DNA of 42,735 bases, taken from positions 1-42,735 of the forward strand of contig CAIXRH010000219.1 in assembly GCA_903921785.1 (NCBI GenBank), written 5' to 3'. The notes beneath the pieces were generated by a model. It was not told the DNA's origin, ran no database searches, and worked only from the letters and a program-made list of their open reading frames with translations. This DNA comes from an uncultured Pseudomonadota bacterium (GTDB taxonomy: Bacteria > Myxococcota_A > UBA796 > SXON01). This document shows positions 17,663 through 25,638 of this stretch, piece after piece. The first letter of the stretch is position 1, and each line of letters begins with the position of its first letter. The position numbers were made by a program, and so were the translations under genes.

Positions 17663-17696
17663 GCCTCAGGGCCCGAAGGGAGGCGGCGCAGGCTCA
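17660..17696. terminator. Shared hairpin spanning two convergent stop codons
   Basis: TGAGCCT (17660-17666) and AGGCTCA (17690-17696) pair perfectly over 7 bp with a 23-base loop. The left arm contains the transporter stop (17660-17662) and touches the opposing gene's stop (17666-17668). Confidence 0.45.
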
Positions 17697-20080
17697 GAGA
17701 GATCCGCGGACGTGACCAGCAAGTAGCCGGACGGGAGCCTCAACCTCAGCTCGGCGCTCGCGGCCGCAGGGCTCACCCGGGTGGGGAGGAGCATCGGTGG
17801 CGGCGGGTAATGCGCGAGGTCTACCGTCGTGGCGTAGACCTCGGCACCGTCGACGGACAGGCTCACCTCCAGGGCGCCCGAAGCGGGGACGGCGGCGCCG
17901 CCGAGCTCAAGGGAGTCCGCACCGGCGACGAGTCGCTGCAACGGCTCGGCGTCCACCGAGAACGTGAGCTCGTCCCCCGGGTAGAGCCAGCGGGCCGCGC
18001 CGCTGCCACAGGCCCGGTCGGGGTCCAGCGCGACCGCATAGGTGTGCGCCGCCGTGGCGTCGAACTCCGCGGGGAAGTTGACCCGGAGCTGCCCGCCAGC
18101 GTGCCCAAGTCGAGGCTTGCCGGGCGCCGTGCGCCCACCCACGAGGCGGGCGCCATCCAGGATCAGCTGCATCGGCGAACAGCCCGTGCCTGCCGACTTG
18201 TAGGTCTGGTCGTGGGAGGGCACCGCGAACCCCGAGACGTCGAACAGCCAGAGTCCGGGCTCTCTCCCGGCCACGGGGGCAGCGACATCCCCGGAGAGGG
18301 ACGGCGGCTCCGCGGCGGCCTCGACCTCTCCCGCCAGCAGCGAGACCTGACCCCGGCGGGCCGGCTTGCCGATGAGGTACACCGGCGCGTCGGCAGGCCC
18401 CGTCACCACCCGCTGTAGCAGCACGTACGGTCCGTCCGAGGGGGAGGCCACCGTGAACGTCCACGCGTCCTCGCCCGCCGGCCCCACGACATTGCCGGCG
18501 TAGCCCGAACCGAACGGGTCGAGCGCCACCGCCGCGCCTTCGCCAAGCCGAACGGTCGGCGCGGCCACGCCGCGCACCGGCGCAGCGACCTCCACCCGAA
18601 CCTCACGCTTTCCGGCGCCTGCCCCGGCCGGATCGGGCACGGTGACCGTGAGCTCCGTGCCCGGGTACACCCACCAGACTTCCTGGAATTCTCCACCGCG
18701 AGCCGGCGCCGCGGCGGTGAGGGCCGCGCGGTACTGGTGGCGCTCGGCCGACTCCGGCCCCGGACCCGTGGGCGAGAACTTGAAGCGTCCGCCCACGAAG
18801 CCCGACGCGCCGACGCAGGTGTCGACGACGTTTCCGAGGGCGTGGGTCTGGAGCTCCGTGGCGTCCTCGAGCACCACCAACGGCGAGACCTGCCCGAGGC
18901 CCGCGGCCGCCAGGGCGTGGTCCGCCAGCTCGGGGAGCCCCGTAAACGGCGCGATGTAGCCGCAACCCCGGCTGGTCCGGTACGGCGAGAGCGTGGCGAG
19001 CTGCGGCGGCGTCCCCGCCCGGGTGCCGGTGAGGACCCGCTTGGGCGGTTGGGGCGCCGCGGGCGTCATCCGCCCGGTCCCGACGCCCACGGCGGCGACG
19101 GCCTCCAAGAACTGCGGGGTGAACCGGCCGCGGCCCGCCGTGGAGAGGTGGACCCCGTCGCCGTACGCGCTCGCGGTGAGGTCGGCGTCCCGCAGGTCGA
19201 GGTACCCGTCGCCGAGGTGGGCGAGGAGCCGGATCACCTCGGGCTCGAGCTCGGGCGGCACCGAGTCCACCGAGACCTTGGAGGCCGCGAGCGGCGCACG
19301 CACGAAGAGCACCTGGGCCCCGTGGCTGTGGGCCAGGGTGAGCAGATCCGGGATGAGCGTGTCCATCACCCCGTCCCCGGCCGTGGCGTCGCTGAGCTCC
19401 TGCTCGACCACCGGGCCGACATGGCGGGTGGCCTCCTTTTGGTTCTCACTTGAGAACAGGCTGGCGAACGCCGGCTCTGCGTACGCGGCGCCCCGCTCGC
19501 CGACGCCCCCCGCCCCTGCCGGCGCGAGGAACAGCCCGACCGCGAGGTCCCGGGTGCCATCCAGCAGCGAACGATGCCACTCCCCGCGGCGAGCGAGCGC
19601 GAGCTGCATGCGCGGGTCGGCCATGCCCTTGCCGTAGACCTTCTGGTCGAGCGCGGGAATGGCACCGGTTGCCACCTCCGCGAGCCGGGCGCGCTGGGCA
19701 TCACTGGGCAGCTGGGTCTGCGCCATCATCTGCAGGGTGGCGTAGACGATGACCAGCTTCGGCTCGTACCCCGCCGCGTACACCCGATCGTGGAGCACGG
19801 CGTACCAAACGGGCATCCCGGTCCCCTTCACGCCCAGCGGCACCACGCCTGCCCCCTCGGGGTACAGGCGACCGATCGCCTCCGGGTCGAGGTCGGTGCC
19901 CACCTTGGAGTTGCCGAGGAGGACCACGTCCACGTTCTCCACCGCCTTCAGCCGCCCGTCGAGCACCCGGGCCGGGAGAGGCAGCGGCGCCTCCGTCACG
20001 GCCTCAGCGGGCCAGAACAACGCCGCGCCAAGGGCCGCGAACAGCACCACGGGGCCCAGAATCGCGAGGAGCCGGGTCAT
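17666..20080 (-). CDS. Membrane-anchored SGNH-type protein with repeated C-terminal modules
   Basis: An 804-residue envelope protein. A signal anchor (residues 3-23) is followed by an SGNH/AlgX-like fold (about 35-335) with nucleophile block LLGNSKVGTDLD (S58) and DGVHLSTAGR giving D308 and H311, so a Ser-His-Asp triad is possible. The rest is extracytoplasmic with repeated modules marked by WVYPGTELTVTV and, nearer the end, RWLYPGDELTFSV after LDPDRACG. The ATG overlaps the upstream paralogue's stop (ATGA) and has GGAGGGG ahead. Relatives acetylate or deacetylate polysaccharides; no acyltransferase partner is in the window. Confidence 0.72.
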   Translation of the reverse strand: MTRLLAILGPVVLFAALGAALFWPAEAVTEAPLPLPARVLDGRLKAVENVDVVLLGNSKVGTDLDPEAIGRLYPEGAGVVPLGVKGTGMPVWYAVLHDRVYAAGYEPKLVIVYATLQMMAQTQLPSDAQRARLAEVATGAIPALDQKVYGKGMADPRMQLALARRGEWHRSLLDGTRDLAVGLFLAPAGAGGVGERGAAYAEPAFASLFSSENQKEATRHVGPVVEQELSDATAGDGVMDTLIPDLLTLAHSHGAQVLFVRAPLAASKVSVDSVPPELEPEVIRLLAHLGDGYLDLRDADLTASAYGDGVHLSTAGRGRFTPQFLEAVAAVGVGTGRMTPAAPQPPKRVLTGTRAGTPPQLATLSPYRTSRGCGYIAPFTGLPELADHALAAAGLGQVSPLVVLEDATELQTHALGNVVDTCVGASGFVGGRFKFSPTGPGPESAERHQYRAALTAAAPARGGEFQEVWWVYPGTELTVTVPDPAGAGAGKREVRVEVAAPVRGVAAPTVRLGEGAAVALDPFGSGYAGNVVGPAGEDAWTFTVASPSDGPYVLLQRVVTGPADAPVYLIGKPARRGQVSLLAGEVEAAAEPPSLSGDVAAPVAGREPGLWLFDVSGFAVPSHDQTYKSAGTGCSPMQLILDGARLVGGRTAPGKPRLGHAGGQLRVNFPAEFDATAAHTYAVALDPDRACGSGAARWLYPGDELTFSVDAEPLQRLVAGADSLELGGAAVPASGALEVSLSVDGAEVYATTVDLAHYPPPPMLLPTRVSPAAASAELRLRLPSGYLLVTSADLSEPAPPPFGP

Positions 20081-22152
20081 CCCCTCCCCGCCACCAGCGA
20101 CGCGCGCCCGAGGAGCACCCACGGCGCACTGGCCGGGACCGTGACGCGTACCGTGACCGCGCCCGATGGCGCCCGGGACAGCGGCAGGCGCGGCGGGTCC
20201 GTGCGCAGGTCCTCCAGCGACACGGACTCGTCCAGCAGCTCGCCCTTGCCGTCGCGGACGACCACATGGAGCGTGGCGCCCCCGGCCGCGCCGAGGACGC
20301 CCCCGGCGAGCTCGATCGCCCAGCCGCTCCCGCCGCCCTCCACCGTGGTGTGCCAGGTCTGTTCATCCCCTGGGTAGAGCCAGCGACCGTGGCTCCGCGC
20401 CGGGCAGCCGCGGTCCGGGTCGAGGTGCACGGGCACCTCGGTGAGCGTGAGGGCGGCGCAGTCGACGCTGTCCACCACGAGCGAGGTCCCACGCAGGCTG
20501 CTCCGGAGCTTCTCGTCGGTCCGAAGCGGGCTGCACGCGCCAACGCCGCTCGCATCGAAGGCGTCGTCGGCCTCGGGCACGTGCAGCGCGCTCGCATCGG
20601 CCGTACGTTCGCTAGGGAATCTCCCGGCGCGCCCCTTCAGCGGGAGGGTCGGGAGCGCGGGGGGCAGCGCGGCGTCGATCGGCGCGCCGATGAGATCGAG
20701 GGCGCGCGGCGCCACCGGCGGCGTGTCCCCCGCGGAGCGAACCAAAAACCAGCCCTTCTCCCCCACGAGGTCCACGCCACCGCCGGGTCCGGCCGGGGCA
20801 TCGAACGCGACGGAGCCCGCAGAGAAGACCACCGGGCTTCCCGCGACCATCAGCGAACCGGCCATGGGCGCCCAGCCCGTGACGGTGACGCTCCCGCCCA
20901 ACCCGTCCATGTGGAGTGTTGCGCCCGGCGCCACCCACCACCCGGCCAGGCCGGCGTCGCCGCGCACCGCGGCGTCCGCCGACGCGACGAGCTTGAGCCC
21001 CTTCTGCTTCGCGGATGGCACCGCAGCGACGAGCGTAGCGCCCTCGGCGCGCCAGCGGGCGTCGCACTCCACGGACGATCCCGCCGCGCGCGCCACGAGA
21101 GGCTTCGCCCAAAGCGCAGGCATCAGCGGAGACGCGCCCGCGAAGCCGGCGGCGCGGAGCGCCTCCGGACCGAGCGGAGCGAGCTCAGCCGGCAGGGTGG
21201 CGCGGGCTTCGCACTCGCCGGCGGCGGTGAACGGGAGCGTGGGGGGGGGAGTGGGCGGGGTCGTCCAGTGGGGGGCAGGGGGCGGGGCGGCGAACGCCGG
21301 CGCGGGCAGCGGAGCGCCGCCGAGCCAGTCGCCGAGCCCGCTGAGTGTTCGCGCCAGGACGTCCGTCGTGGCGCGGCGCCCCGCTTCGTTCATGTGCACG
21401 CCGTCCCCGAAGTACCGCTCGTCGCCCAGCGCGCCGCGGAGGTCGATCCAACCGCCCCCGGCCGCGGCGACGAGCCCGCGCGCCGCAGCCTCATCCGCCG
21501 GGGAGACCTCGTCCTCCAGCGCGCCGGAGAGGCCGACCGGTTGGCGCACGAACAAGACCCGGGCACCGTTCGCCGTCGCCTCCGCGACGATCTGGGCCAG
21601 GAAGGACTCGCGCACAGGCAGCGGCTCGACCGGCTTCGCGAGCTCCGGCGCCTTCGTACGGTCCGGGTCACAGACGTTGCCGCCAGCCTGGAGGTACTTC
21701 TCCCGCAGATCGTCGGGGAGGGCGCCGCCAAAGAGGCGGAGGAGGCTGGGGGGGCTCGTGCCCTGAACCTGCTGCGCGAGCTGCGACCGGGCGGCGGCGT
21801 TGGGAAGCGCGGTCACAAGCGCGGCTTGAAGCGGCGCATAAACCAGGACTCCCCTCGGTTTCACCCCGGTGCCGTAGACCCGCTCGTGCAGCACCGCATA
21901 CCAGACTGGCGCCGGGGTGCCGGGCAAGCCCATCGCCACGTAGTGCGGTGCGGGTTGGGGGAGGGCCGCCTGAAGGCGGGCGAAGTCGAGGTCGGTCCTG
22001 ACCTTGCTGTTGCCGAGCACGACCACGTCTACCGGCGGAACGAGCCGCGATTCCAGCTCTCGCGCCAAGGGCGTGGGCACGGCACCCCACGCGAGGGGCG
22101 CCGTGGCGAAGGTGGACAACGCCAGGAGCTGGAGCCCACGAGATCGGGTCAT
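20077..22152 (-). CDS. SGNH-type envelope protein, paralogue of its downstream neighbour
   Basis: A 691-residue protein built like the 17666 gene. A signal sequence ends about residue 24 (LAWGA), then an SGNH-like domain has VVLGNSKVRTDLD (S49) and DGVHMNEAGRR (D250, H253). The C-terminal region carries one full module with HLDPDRGC...GRWLYPGDEQTW. Both proteins share VWYAVLHxRVY and the same order of blocks, so they arose by tandem duplication. ATG 22152 has a GA-rich Shine-Dalgarno; longer in-frame extension to 22341 has no support. A 17-codon open frame with a leaderless-type promoter overlaps this start. Confidence 0.72.
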   Translation of the reverse strand: MTRSRGLQLLALSTFATAPLAWGAVPTPLARELESRLVPPVDVVVLGNSKVRTDLDFARLQAALPQPAPHYVAMGLPGTPAPVWYAVLHERVYGTGVKPRGVLVYAPLQAALVTALPNAAARSQLAQQVQGTSPPSLLRLFGGALPDDLREKYLQAGGNVCDPDRTKAPELAKPVEPLPVRESFLAQIVAEATANGARVLFVRQPVGLSGALEDEVSPADEAAARGLVAAAGGGWIDLRGALGDERYFGDGVHMNEAGRRATTDVLARTLSGLGDWLGGAPLPAPAFAAPPPAPHWTTPPTPPPTLPFTAAGECEARATLPAELAPLGPEALRAAGFAGASPLMPALWAKPLVARAAGSSVECDARWRAEGATLVAAVPSAKQKGLKLVASADAAVRGDAGLAGWWVAPGATLHMDGLGGSVTVTGWAPMAGSLMVAGSPVVFSAGSVAFDAPAGPGGGVDLVGEKGWFLVRSAGDTPPVAPRALDLIGAPIDAALPPALPTLPLKGRAGRFPSERTADASALHVPEADDAFDASGVGACSPLRTDEKLRSSLRGTSLVVDSVDCAALTLTEVPVHLDPDRGCPARSHGRWLYPGDEQTWHTTVEGGGSGWAIELAGGVLGAAGGATLHVVVRDGKGELLDESVSLEDLRTDPPRLPLSRAPSGAVTVRVTVPASAPWVLLGRASLVAGRG

Positions 22153-22202
22153 CGGCCCCCCTCGCCCGCCCTCGACCCGCGCCGCCAACCCTGATCCTGC
22201 AT
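22149..22202 (-). CDS. Candidate 17-codon upstream leader ORF
   Basis: ATG at 22202 is preceded by TACCTT exactly six bases upstream. The frame encodes MQDQGWRRGSRAGEGGR and its TGA overlaps the ATG of the SGNH gene (ATGA). If the transcript starts at this ATG, ribosomes would load on the small frame and re-initiate on the large gene, whose Shine-Dalgarno lies inside it. The alternative is that the small frame is not translated and serves only as a 50-base leader. Confidence 0.35.
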   Translation of the reverse strand: MQDQGWRRGSRAGEGGR

Positions 22203-22208
22203 CCCCCA

Positions 22209-22214
22209 AAGGTA
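22209..22214 (-). promoter_or_regulatory. -10-like hexamer, SGNH operon
   Basis: TACCTT on the minus strand, six bases before the ATG of the 17-codon frame and 56 bases before the SGNH start. It matches the hexamer shared by many gene heads in this window. Confidence 0.45.
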
Positions 22215-22314
22215 GCACGCGCTCCATCCGTCCTCGCGGGTCCGCATCGCGGGTTTTCGGTGCAGCGCACCGTCCCCTGACAACGCCCCCGATCCAGTCC
22301 CCGCGCCGCCTTGC

Positions 22315-22320
22315 TACACT
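22315..22320 (+). promoter_or_regulatory. -10-like hexamer, 261-residue gene
   Basis: TACACT lies 19 bases before ATG 22340. GCGGAG between them can act as a Shine-Dalgarno site, so this gene looks leadered. No -35 match was seen at 16-18 bases. Confidence 0.4.
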
Positions 22321-22339
22321 CCCGGGCGGAGCGGGCCCC

Positions 22340-23125
22340 ATGACCAGGCAGATCGGCGACGGCTACCACCTGAAGTTCACCATCGGGAAGGCGCTCTGGA
22401 ACGACCTGTTCGGCGCCGGCCTCCCATTCGAGGTCGGAAAAGGAACGTTCGACCTTATCAAGCAGGTGCGCATGGGCGTGAAGCAGCTCGGCGTGAGGGA
22501 CCGTGTTCGCGGCCTCCTGGAGGACCGCCAGGTGCAGCTGCCGGCCGTCGTGGTGCGTGGAAAGGACGCCGCGGTGAAGGTCTGGGAGGACCGGCGCGAG
22601 GGCGTCTGGAAGATCGTGGAGGAGATGGTGCGCGTCGAAGGCGACTGGAAGGTCGAGGTCGACCGTGAAGGAAGCGACTTCCACTACGGGAACCAGAAGT
22701 TCGGCGTGGAGGCGCACGTCAAGGCGGTGGCCTCCGGCAAGGTCTACCTGCTCCGCGAGAACATCGAGTTCCCGTTCGTGCTGGAGAAGCGCATCGGCGC
22801 CGAAGCCGCGCTCGGCGACATCCACTACGACAAGGAGCGCCGCACCCTCATCGGCCACCTCGAAGACGTGGAGATCGATCTCGGGGACGCCTTCATCCTC
22901 CAGATGCTCAGCCGTGGCGTCGAGCGCCTGCTCAAGGAGCAGGTGGAGAAGGTGAACCCGGTACCGATCCTCCGCAAGGACCAGCTCGAAGAGATGGTCG
23001 CCCCGGCGGGGGGCCCCCTGAAGGTCAAGATGGGCGTGGAGGACGTTGCGCTCGACATCTCGGAGGACGAGATGACGTTGAAGGTGCGCTTCGGGTTCCA
23101 GCAGCTCCAGCTCACCGCACGGTAG
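22340..23125 (+). CDS. Unrecognised 261-residue protein
   Basis: I do not recognise this protein. It is charged and alternating in pattern with many Val/Lys/Glu strands (KVEVDREGSDFHYGNQKF, VEAHVKAVASGKVYLLREN), no signal peptide and no membrane segment. The C-terminal 60 residues include LLKEQVEKVNPVPILRKDQLEEMV and another strand-rich stretch. The pattern suggests a beta-rich, possibly lipid- or membrane-surface-associated soluble protein. Codon use resembles its neighbours, so it is not recent acquisition. It is transcribed alone and converges on the signal-peptidase-like gene. Confidence 0.75.
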   Translation: MTRQIGDGYHLKFTIGKALWNDLFGAGLPFEVGKGTFDLIKQVRMGVKQLGVRDRVRGLLEDRQVQLPAVVVRGKDAAVKVWEDRREGVWKIVEEMVRVEGDWKVEVDREGSDFHYGNQKFGVEAHVKAVASGKVYLLRENIEFPFVLEKRIGAEAALGDIHYDKERRTLIGHLEDVEIDLGDAFILQMLSRGVERLLKEQVEKVNPVPILRKDQLEEMVAPAGGPLKVKMGVEDVALDISEDEMTLKVRFGFQQLQLTAR

Positions 23126-23130
23126 CCGCC

Positions 23131-23155
23131 CCGGCGAGCCCCCTCAGCTCGCCGG
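23131..23155. terminator. Bidirectional hairpin, convergent pair
   Basis: CCGGCGAGC (23131-23139) and GCTCGCCGG (23147-23155) form a perfect 9-bp stem with a 7-base loop. The loop contains the stop codon of the minus-strand signal-peptidase-like gene (23144-23146). It lies five bases past the plus-strand stop. No U-tract. Confidence 0.6.
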
Positions 23156-23734
23156 CCCCAGCTTCGACTGCGGCACCACCGCCCGCTCGCCTCGCCCACC
23201 GAAAATGCCCCGCCAAGGCGTGCTCGGCAGGCCGACCCTCGCCACGACCACGCCCCGGATCGCGTCCAGCGGTACGGGGCCCCACCAGCGACTGTCGAGG
23301 GCGTCGTCCCGGGCATCGGCGCCGAGGAACGCGGACTCGTCGGGGACGCCGACCTCGTCCCGCCGGGCCCGGGTGGTCGACTCGGCGCGGAGCACGAGGT
23401 GTTCTCCTTCGAGCTCCACCGGACGTCCCTGGTATTCCCCCATGTCGAGAAGCTTCACTTTCGGTCGGTTTGAGGTTCGGAATACCCGACCATCGTAGCG
23501 CACGGCCCCGCCGATCGCCTCCACCCGCCGCAGCGTCCAGCGGCTCGGGTCGAGCGGGTCGCTCACCACCACGACGTCCCCTTCGCGCGGCGTCGCCGGC
23601 ACCACGACGACGAGATCGCCTGGGAGGAGGCTCGGCGCCATCTCGGCGTCCGCGACGCGGGCCACACGCGAGGACGCCCCGAGGAGGAGCAGCCCCACCA
23701 TGGCGAGGCCCACGAGGAGCGGTCGACGGCTCAC
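23144..23734 (-). CDS. Signal peptidase I-like protein lacking the Ser/Lys dyad
   Basis: A 196-residue S26-family protein. An N-terminal membrane segment (about residues 6-20) is followed by box B DAEMAPSLLPGDLVVV, where the usual Ser before Met is Glu31. Box D reads TLRRVEAIGG, where the general-base Lys is Arg69. Box E keeps DSRWWG (147-152) but not GDN. The fold should be that of LepB while peptidase activity is doubtful. GTG at 23734 overlaps the FG-GAP stop (GTGA), so the two are made together. It could be a chaperone or regulator of that lipoprotein, or a decayed LepB paralogue. Confidence 0.8.
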   Translation of the reverse strand: MSRRPLLVGLAMVGLLLLGASSRVARVADAEMAPSLLPGDLVVVVPATPREGDVVVVSDPLDPSRWTLRRVEAIGGAVRYDGRVFRTSNRPKVKLLDMGEYQGRPVELEGEHLVLRAESTTRARRDEVGVPDESAFLGADARDDALDSRWWGPVPLDAIRGVVVARVGLPSTPWRGIFGGRGERAVVPQSKLGPAS

Positions 23735-25638
23735 TCGCAGAACGGCTTCTTCACGACGGCTTCGTTGTCGATCTCGGTGCACTCGCTCACGGAGCCGGTC
23801 CCGGTCCCGTCGTCGTCCACCTGCACGACGAGGCGGTCGGCCAGCTCGAGGTCCGCCGCCTTCACCGAGAAGACCACGGCCTCCGAGGTCATCTCCTTGG
23901 GCGTGGCCGTGGTGGTGACCGCGGTGTCCAAGAGCACCTTCGTACCGCTGACCTCGGCGTAGATCGCCAGCGAGAGCCCCGCCGGGATGTCCTTCCCCCC
24001 CGAGTTGCGCGCGCGCGCCGTCACGTTGTACCAGCCCCGGTCGCAGTCGTCGGCGCAGGTCTCGACCACCTCGACCTCGAGCTCCGCGTCGAGCGCCTCG
24101 CCGGGGGCCACCGCCGTCGCAGAGTGGAAGCTGTTGTAGGTGGAGAAGTTCTGTGTCGGGTTCTGGGGGATCGTCAGATCGTCATTGACGTTGGTGATGA
24201 TGTAGGGGTGCTGATTCCACACCCGCCGCGCCGGCCCCCAGCTGTTGGCCGCGTCCCGGTAGACCGACATGCCTGAGGTGTACTGGTCGTGGGTGACCAC
24301 GATGTCGGCGTGACCGTCGGCGTCTACGTCCGCGATGACCGGGTAGTCGTACATCGTGTCGCTGGCGTGCTTGTCCGTCTTGAACTTCACGGCGCCATCC
24401 GGCCCGTTGAAGGCGTACATCGCCACCTCATCAATGTAGATGACCTCCAGGGCGCCGTCGCCCTCGAAGTCGAACATCGAAGCGCCGGTGGCCCCGGTGA
24501 GGTCCTCGATCGGACGGCTCCACAGCACCGAACCATCCTCCCCGTTGTACGCCCACAGCCGGTTCGCGCGGGCCTCGATGATCTCCGGGAGCCCGTCTCC
24601 GTCGATGTCGCCGACCGCGGGGATCGACATGATGCCGTCGGTGTCGCCGCCACCACCGGGGACCTCGACCGTCCAGATGTTCGACCCGTCGGTGTCGATC
24701 GCTTCGAGGGTACCGTAGGTGGCCCTCAGGAATTCCCCCTCCGGATCGCTATCGAGGTTGGCGATGGCCGTGGCCCCGTCCTGCCCGCCACGGATGGACA
24801 TCACCTCGTGCCCCTCGACGTCGTATACGGCGTTGCCGACCACCACATCCTCATTGCCATCCAGATCGATGTCCGAGACCGATGGCGACGACCCCTCGCC
24901 GTACATCGGACCGACCCCCCCGAAGTAGTCATCGCTGCCTCGCCCGGACCGGCCCACGCCGCGCTCGGTGAGGTCGTCGTTGAGGATCACGCGCCCAGCC
25001 ACCACCTCCACAGCGCCGTCATGATCGAGATCGCTGAGGATGAGACTGGTCGCATGGTCGAACTCGGCGTCGGTGTACTGCTCCGACTCGGCCATCAGGT
25101 TCCCGTCGAGGTCGTACTTGACCACGCTGAACTTTCCGTCGCCGAAAAGGTTGTCTTCATAGAGCTTCACCGCGAAGATCTCGGCCTTGCCATCCCGATC
25201 CACGTCCCCGAGGACGGGCCCGGAGCCGTAGGCGATCTGGGCGCCGCTGGTCTCCCAGACCTCGCCGCTCCCGTCGCCCTCGTACACGGCCAGCTCGCCC
25301 TTGCTCGAGAACAGCCACCCCCAGGTGACCACGATCTCCGGCATCCCGTCTCCGTCAAGGTCGCCCACGGCGGGCAGGGAGCAGGCGTGCGTGCCCTTGA
25401 CCTCCCAGGCCACCACCGGATCGAAGCCGACGCTCCCGCCGAACGCGCAGGTATCCGACGCCGCGACGGCCTCCGGCGGCCACTCGTCGGGAGAGCAGGC
25501 GCCGAGGTCCTCGGTGGTGGGGTCGTAGGCGGTGTCGGTTCCCGGATCGGAGATCCCTTCGGGATCATCCACATGCTTGAGGTTCCAGTCGGAACATCCG
25601 AGGAGCAGTCCCGGGAGGAGCAGGGCGAGTCGGCGCAT
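23731..25638 (-). CDS. FG-GAP/VCBS beta-propeller lipoprotein
   Basis: A 635-residue surface or periplasmic lipoprotein. The signal MRRLALLLPGLLLGC has a LLGC lipobox at Cys15, then a Asp/Thr-rich spacer. Several FG-GAP/VCBS blades follow, each with a calcium-type loop: GDLDGDGMPEIVV, GDVDRDGKAEIF, SDLDHDGAVEVV, SDIDLDGNEDVVV, GDIDGDGLPEII and ADVDADGHADIVV. The last 130 residues look like a CARDB-type adhesion domain. ATG has TAGGGC six bases upstream. It is operonic with the degenerate signal peptidase and divergent from the hybrid histidine kinase. Confidence 0.88.
   Translation of the reverse strand: MRRLALLLPGLLLGCSDWNLKHVDDPEGISDPGTDTAYDPTTEDLGACSPDEWPPEAVAASDTCAFGGSVGFDPVVAWEVKGTHACSLPAVGDLDGDGMPEIVVTWGWLFSSKGELAVYEGDGSGEVWETSGAQIAYGSGPVLGDVDRDGKAEIFAVKLYEDNLFGDGKFSVVKYDLDGNLMAESEQYTDAEFDHATSLILSDLDHDGAVEVVAGRVILNDDLTERGVGRSGRGSDDYFGGVGPMYGEGSSPSVSDIDLDGNEDVVVGNAVYDVEGHEVMSIRGGQDGATAIANLDSDPEGEFLRATYGTLEAIDTDGSNIWTVEVPGGGGDTDGIMSIPAVGDIDGDGLPEIIEARANRLWAYNGEDGSVLWSRPIEDLTGATGASMFDFEGDGALEVIYIDEVAMYAFNGPDGAVKFKTDKHASDTMYDYPVIADVDADGHADIVVTHDQYTSGMSVYRDAANSWGPARRVWNQHPYIITNVNDDLTIPQNPTQNFSTYNSFHSATAVAPGEALDAELEVEVVETCADDCDRGWYNVTARARNSGGKDIPAGLSLAIYAEVSGTKVLLDTAVTTTATPKEMTSEAVVFSVKAADLELADRLVVQVDDDGTGTGSVSECTEIDNEAVVKKPFCE

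What the first reader, a model, noticed from the sequence alone, without database searches (positions are those of the whole stretch)
23144..23734. Signal peptidase homologue that has lost both catalytic residues
Box B reads EMAPS where the nucleophile Ser should precede Met (Glu31), and the box D Lys is Arg69, yet box E DSRWWG, the membrane anchor and the overall length remain. Losing both residues while keeping an intact frame suggests a retained non-peptidase role. It is coupled by GTGA to an FG-GAP lipoprotein, so it may bind or guide that protein rather than cut it.
Basis: partly seen in the sequence, partly recalled or inferred. Interest (0 to 1): 0.6.

Follow-up and report, generated by a model that had tools for sequence, protein, structure and literature searches.

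The report
Conserved dead signal peptidase, function unproven
A bacterium (probably a freshwater myxobacterial relative) and nearly forty related species keep, beside a normal signal peptidase, a second copy that has lost its cutting machinery, most likely so that it can bind exported peptides or proteins without cutting them.

Summary
Window 23144-23734 (-) encodes a 196-aa, membrane-anchored signal peptidase I homologue with Glu31 at the LepB Ser90 position and Arg69 at the Lys145 position. Two more active-site residues are lost: Gly272 is Ala139 and Ser278 is Ala145. The oxyanion Ser88 is Asp29.

It is not a decaying gene. I found orthologues in 39 genomes from five families of one order (22 of 22 in the window's family). 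None has the Ser-Lys dyad. Arg69 and Ala139 are invariant, and Ser278 is never Ser. The Ser90 position drifts (Glu 22, Asp 6, Ala 5, Gly 4, Ser 1), so Glu is not a new catalytic residue. Close pairs give dN/dS of about 0.1-0.2. The genome also has an intact LepB. AlphaFold gives a confident signal peptidase fold (pLDDT 90) whose PDB matches include E. coli LepB and the dead streptococcal homologue SipA. The hydrophobic cleft floor is kept.

The FG-GAP partner idea is weak: the lipoprotein is adjacent in 17 of 22 family genomes but in no other family, and the two genes are separable.

Best reading: a membrane-tethered pseudopeptidase that binds a peptide without cutting it, as SipA is proposed to do. 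The dead enzyme is well supported; its ligand is unknown.

The parts
23144..23734 (-). CDS of the inactive signal peptidase I homologue (S26 fold), 196 aa, GTG start, stop included
   Evidence: Pfam PF10502 E 5.7e-15; AlphaFold pLDDT 90.1 and Foldseek to LepB/SipA
23672..23725 (-). N-terminal membrane-anchor helix, residues 4-21, after an Arg-Arg pair (predicted cytoplasmic side)
   Evidence: helix 4-21 in the model; topology inferred from the positive-inside rule
23642..23650 (-). Degenerate box B: Asp29 (LepB Ser88, oxyanion hole), Ala30, Glu31 (LepB Ser90, nucleophile)
   Evidence: alignment to LepB; position 31 in orthologues: E22 D6 A5 G4 S1
23525..23530 (-). Degenerate box D: Arg69 (LepB Lys145, general base) and Arg70 (LepB Arg146)
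   Evidence: alignment to LepB; Arg at both positions in 39 of 39 orthologues
23270..23326 (-). Box E, residues 137-155 (LGADARDDALDSRWWGPVP): structural Asp140, Arg142, Asp147, Ser148, Arg149, Gly152 kept; Gly272 is Ala139 and Ser278 is Ala145
23731..25638 (-). Upstream gene: FG-GAP repeat lipoprotein (LLLGC lipobox), translationally coupled by GTGA; a neighbour, not shown to be a partner
   Evidence: PF13517 5.2e-26; adjacency in 17 of 22 family genomes; separable
22358..23125 (+). Convergent downstream gene, conserved protein without a Pfam family; positional landmark (usually next to ndk-sucD-sucC in relatives), not part of the system

Best explanation
It is a membrane-anchored pseudo-signal-peptidase, vertically inherited in one order and kept beside a working LepB. 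Shown: homology to S26, loss of the nucleophile, the general base, Ser278 and the Gly272 that gives the base room, purifying selection, a retained signal peptidase fold, a retained hydrophobic cleft floor, and an intact LepB in the same genome. Inferred: the domain sits in the periplasm, still binds an extended peptide in the old substrate cleft, and releases it uncut. It would then act as a tether, chaperone or adaptor for one or more exported proteins, with invariant Arg69-Arg70 and, in most members, an acidic loop (D-x-E or D-D-E) forming the head of the pocket in place of the catalytic site. Confidence is about 0.95 for 'conserved non-peptidase' and about 0.5 for 'peptide-binding tether'. 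The number given here is for the whole statement.
For: S26 membership and alignment to LepB. Orthologues in 39 genomes with no Ser-Lys dyad. One clade, support 100/98, even with the catalytic columns removed. dN/dS of 0.11-0.19 in the closest pairs. Own-genome LepB with IPSGSM, YVKRL and GDNRDNSADSR; two S26 genes, one strong and one of this family, in most genomes of the window's family. Model pLDDT 90.1, best PDB matches LepB, with SipA also significant. Hydrophobic cleft floor kept: Ile86 to V/I, Met91 to M in 38 of 38, Ile101 to V/I/L in 39 of 39, Ile144 mainly to L. SipA shows that a dead S26 protein with a kept cleft can be essential for a non-proteolytic task (PMC4049620).
Against: No ligand or partner was identified. 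Cleft residues Phe84, Asp142, Tyr143 and Val132 have changed (to A or R, W/T/R, T/V/I and mostly A), so binding of an Ala-X-Ala peptide is not assured. In SipA a cleft-blocking mutation did not abolish function (PMC4049620), so a kept cleft does not prove that peptide binding is the function. One orthologue (L071) has Ser at position 31, though still with Arg69 and Ala145.
Confidence: 0.55

Rival explanations
1. Regulator of the real signal peptidase: the dead copy associates with LepB or the Sec translocon, or competes for signal peptides, and so tunes cleavage of a subset of precursors.
For: An intact LepB is present in the same genome, and most family genomes have exactly one strong S26 gene plus this one; same fold and anchor.
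Against: The gene is not next to lepB in the loci read. No bacterial precedent was found in the papers searched.
Confidence: 0.2
2. Dedicated chaperone of the coupled FG-GAP lipoprotein.
For: Overlapping GTGA junction, and adjacency in 17 of 22 genomes of the window's family.
Against: No such adjacency in the other families. FG-GAP orthologues sit elsewhere in G001, G014, G015 and G019, none above 40% identity was listed in G017, and family f3 has FG-GAP orthologues without the pseudopeptidase. Lipoproteins use signal peptidase II.
Confidence: 0.12
3. An active hydrolase with a changed mechanism, using Glu31/Arg69 or another nucleophile.
For: Polar residues remain at the old site; Arg69 is invariant.
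Against: Position 31 is Ala or Gly in 9 orthologues. No other Ser, Thr, Cys, His or Lys is invariant except structural Ser148. Ser278 and Gly272 are lost.
Confidence: 0.03
4. A decaying gene copy in the window's genome.
For: Loss of catalytic residues.
Against: 39 genomes carry the intact frame with the same losses; dN/dS of 0.11-0.19 in close pairs.
Confidence: 0.02

Closest known systems
Streptococcus pyogenes SipA/LepA (PDB 4n31, 4k8w)
   Same: S26 fold, membrane-anchored, acid at Ser90 (Asp48), Lys145, Gly272 and Ser278 all lost, peptide cleft kept, non-proteolytic (PMC4049620)
   Different: SipA has Gly, not Arg, at Lys145, lies in a sortase pilus cluster of a Gram-positive and serves pilus polymerisation. 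No pilus genes lie here, and Arg69 is invariant.
Staphylococcus aureus SpsA
   Same: Inactive S26 paralogue beside an active enzyme; lacks two conserved catalytic residues; dispensable (PMC12445088)
   Different: Not compared by sequence here; located next to spsB (from memory), whereas this gene lies far from lepB.
Type I signal peptidase LepB (E. coli 1b12, 1kn9; this genome G000 C116)
   Same: Fold, membrane anchor, box E scaffold
   Different: Nucleophile, general base, Ser278 and Gly272 all replaced; about 20% identity in structural alignment
Nickel superoxide dismutase maturation protease (TIGR02754)
   Same: Weak profile match, 30 bits
   Different: Far below the cut-off of 63.25 bits; that family is a protease

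Membership tests
Peptidase S26 fold family (PF10502) | Profile score above the curated cut-off | tested here: met
   56.1 bits against 22.9
Peptidase S26 fold family (PF10502) | Signal peptidase fold | tested here: met
   pLDDT 90.1; Foldseek E 6.1e-08 to LepB, TM-score 0.65-0.70 to SipA by target length
Active type I signal peptidase | Ser nucleophile in box B | tested here: not met
   Glu31; Ser in 1 of 38 scorable orthologues
Active type I signal peptidase | Lys general base in box D | tested here: not met
   Arg69; Lys in 0 of 39 orthologues
Active type I signal peptidase | Ser278 and Gly272 in box E | tested here: not met
   Ser278 position is A34 P3 G2; Gly272 position is Ala in 39 of 39
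Active type I signal peptidase | Cleaves signal peptides | not testable with these tools
   needs a biochemical assay
SipA-type non-catalytic signal peptidase homologue | S26 fold without the Ser-Lys dyad, hydrophobic cleft floor kept | tested here: met
   SipA features from PMC4049620
SipA-type non-catalytic signal peptidase homologue | Encoded with sortase and pilin genes | tested here: not met
   neighbours are FG-GAP lipoprotein, an uncharacterised gene, ndk, sucD, sucC, histidine kinase
Nickel superoxide dismutase maturation protease (TIGR02754) | Profile score above the curated cut-off | tested here: not met
   30.2 bits against 63.25

The most novel reading that the evidence does not exclude
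This family is one branch of a large, old, phylum-wide set of non-catalytic signal peptidases that read or hold exported peptides in the periplasm of these bacteria. The invariant Arg pair has turned the dead active site into a specific recognition pocket, for example for an acidic side chain or a free carboxylate. That would be a peptide-receptor role for the signal peptidase fold.
Probability: 0.15. Interest if true: 0.75.

Novelty: new variant of a known kind. Interest (0 to 1): 0.48.

Why it matters
Dead signal peptidases with a proven role are known to me only from Gram-positives (SipA; SpsA is a dispensable example). A strictly conserved one in Gram-negative-type bacteria, unlinked to pili and coexisting with an intact LepB, would show that the fold has been reused more widely as a non-cutting binder. 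There is also a practical point: the protein passes the NCBIfam cut-off for the equivalog 'signal peptidase I' (49.1 against 47 bits), so automatic annotation is likely to call it an active enzyme.

Tried and rejected
Alternative Ser/Lys dyad: rejected, no other conserved pair. Decay: rejected. Functional link to the convergent neighbour 22358-23125: not supported, since that gene and often its ndk-sucCD neighbourhood are present in family f3, which lacks the pseudopeptidase. FG-GAP as obligatory partner: not supported. A phylum-wide single origin of non-catalytic S26 proteins: the best tree groups them, but support is only 61/25, so it is not claimed. Gene context of the more distant dead homologues gave only housekeeping neighbours such as proB, thiE/thiG and an FHA protein, named by eye from the sequences. 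Literature searches found no report of such proteins in Myxococcota within the held library.

Full report
What is there. The minus-strand ORF 23144-23734 starts with GTG at 23734 and encodes 196 residues; its start overlaps the stop of the FG-GAP lipoprotein gene as GTGA. It matches Pfam Peptidase_S26 at 5.7e-15 and NCBIfam TIGR02227 just above cut-off. The phmmer alignment to E. coli LepB, extended by eye with the LepB sequence, aligns PSGSMMPTLLIGD with ADAEMAPSLLPGD, YIKRAVGL with TLRRVEAI, and GDNRDNSADSRYWGFVP with ADARDDALDSRWWGPVP. Gly272 to Ala139, Ser278 to Ala145 and Ser88 to Asp29 are lost as well. In LepB, Ser278 stabilises Lys145, and any side chain at Gly272 would clash with it (PMC4049620), so the whole catalytic centre is dismantled.

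Orthologues. P0001 and then a profile found the protein in 39 genomes: all 22 of the window's family and members of four other families of the same order. It was not found in family f3, in the other families of the class, or at comparable score in 379 genomes drawn from the phylum. Scores fall from 195-243 bits for full-length members (137 for a fragment) to at most 92 bits for everything else. In the alignment, Arg69, Arg70 and Ala139 are 39 of 39; the Ser278 position is Ala, Pro or Gly in all; position 31 is Glu 22, Asp 6, Ala 5, Gly 4, Ser 1, and one fragment lacks it. Structural box E residues Asp140, Arg142, Asp147, Ser148, Arg149 and Gly152 are invariant, as are Trp174-Arg175 near the C-terminus. 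The clade has 100/98 support with the catalytic columns left out. Close pairs have dN/dS of 0.11-0.19. This is a maintained protein.

Other S26 proteins. The window's genome has a canonical LepB on contig C116 with the full set of catalytic residues, and a third S26 protein on C125 that has Gly, His and Ala at the three positions. In most genomes of the family, PF10502 finds one strong LepB and this protein. The LepB copies whose motifs could be read in the order all have Ser, Lys and Ser278; three of the 30 loci gave no match with my motif pattern and were not checked further.

Structure. AlphaFold with the 38-row alignment gave pLDDT 90.1 and pTM 0.84, with a helix at 4-21 followed by a beta-rich domain. 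Foldseek puts E. coli LepB first (E 6.1e-08) and SipA among the significant matches (TM-score 0.65-0.70 by SipA length). Cleft-floor positions mapped from LepB stay hydrophobic (Ile86, Met91, Leu95, Ile101, Ile144), while Phe84, Val132, Asp142 and Tyr143 have changed (the assignment of LepB residues to pockets is from my own knowledge of LepB).

Context. The FG-GAP gene lies directly upstream in 17 of 22 family genomes, often with overlapping or touching stop and start. In G001, G014, G015 and G019 its best match lies on another contig; in G017 the listed matches are at most 40% identical; the other families do not have it next to the pseudopeptidase; and f3 has it without the pseudopeptidase. 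The more stable landmark is the convergent gene 22358-23125, followed in most relatives by ndk, sucD and sucC, but that block exists in f3 too. Context therefore does not name a partner.

Mechanism. The anatomy fits a membrane-tethered, non-cutting binder. SipA is the precedent: it has lost the same four catalytic-centre positions, keeps its cleft, shows no peptidase activity, and is essential for pilus polymerisation; its Asp48 equivalent is dispensable (PMC4049620). The drift at position 31 here agrees with that. What differs is the invariant Arg at the Lys145 position and the absence of any pilus or sortase link. The ligand remains unknown, and the periplasmic location and peptide binding are inferred, not shown.

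Wider picture. Of 45 more distant S26 proteins read (chosen mostly for high score, so a biased sample), 25 lack Ser90, Lys145 or both. The best tree joins many of them with this clade, but with support of only 61/25, so one origin is neither shown nor rejected. The bacterium is probably a member of Myxococcota, inferred from record titles of orthologue loci such as 'Myxococcales bacterium isolate Baikal-deep-G128'.

Noticed in passing
L008 (G000:C125:49701-50207): A third S26 homologue in the same genome, with a multi-helix N-terminal part and Gly, His and Ala at the Ser90, Lys145 and Ser278 positions; also probably non-catalytic.
   Followed up: partly
L130, L131, L132, L135 (same order): S26 proteins that keep Lys145 and Ser278 but have Gly or Ala in place of the nucleophile.
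   Followed up: no
L173:552-1184 (-): An S26 homologue with Gly/Arg/Ala at the catalytic positions overlaps the end of lepA (EF4), the place where lepB sits in E. coli.
   Followed up: no
L116, L118, L122, L125, L127, L147, L148, L152: A group of S26 homologues elsewhere in the phylum with Gly or Ala at Lys145 and a short insertion in box B, several near proB and an FHA/zinc-ribbon gene.
   Followed up: partly
window 22358-23125 (+): Conserved 255-aa protein with no Pfam family, present in 57 of 58 relatives, usually beside ndk and sucCD.
   Followed up: partly
window 17666-22341 (-): Two large adjacent related proteins; one has a weak GDSL/SGNH lipase match (E 0.006, below cut-off).
   Followed up: no
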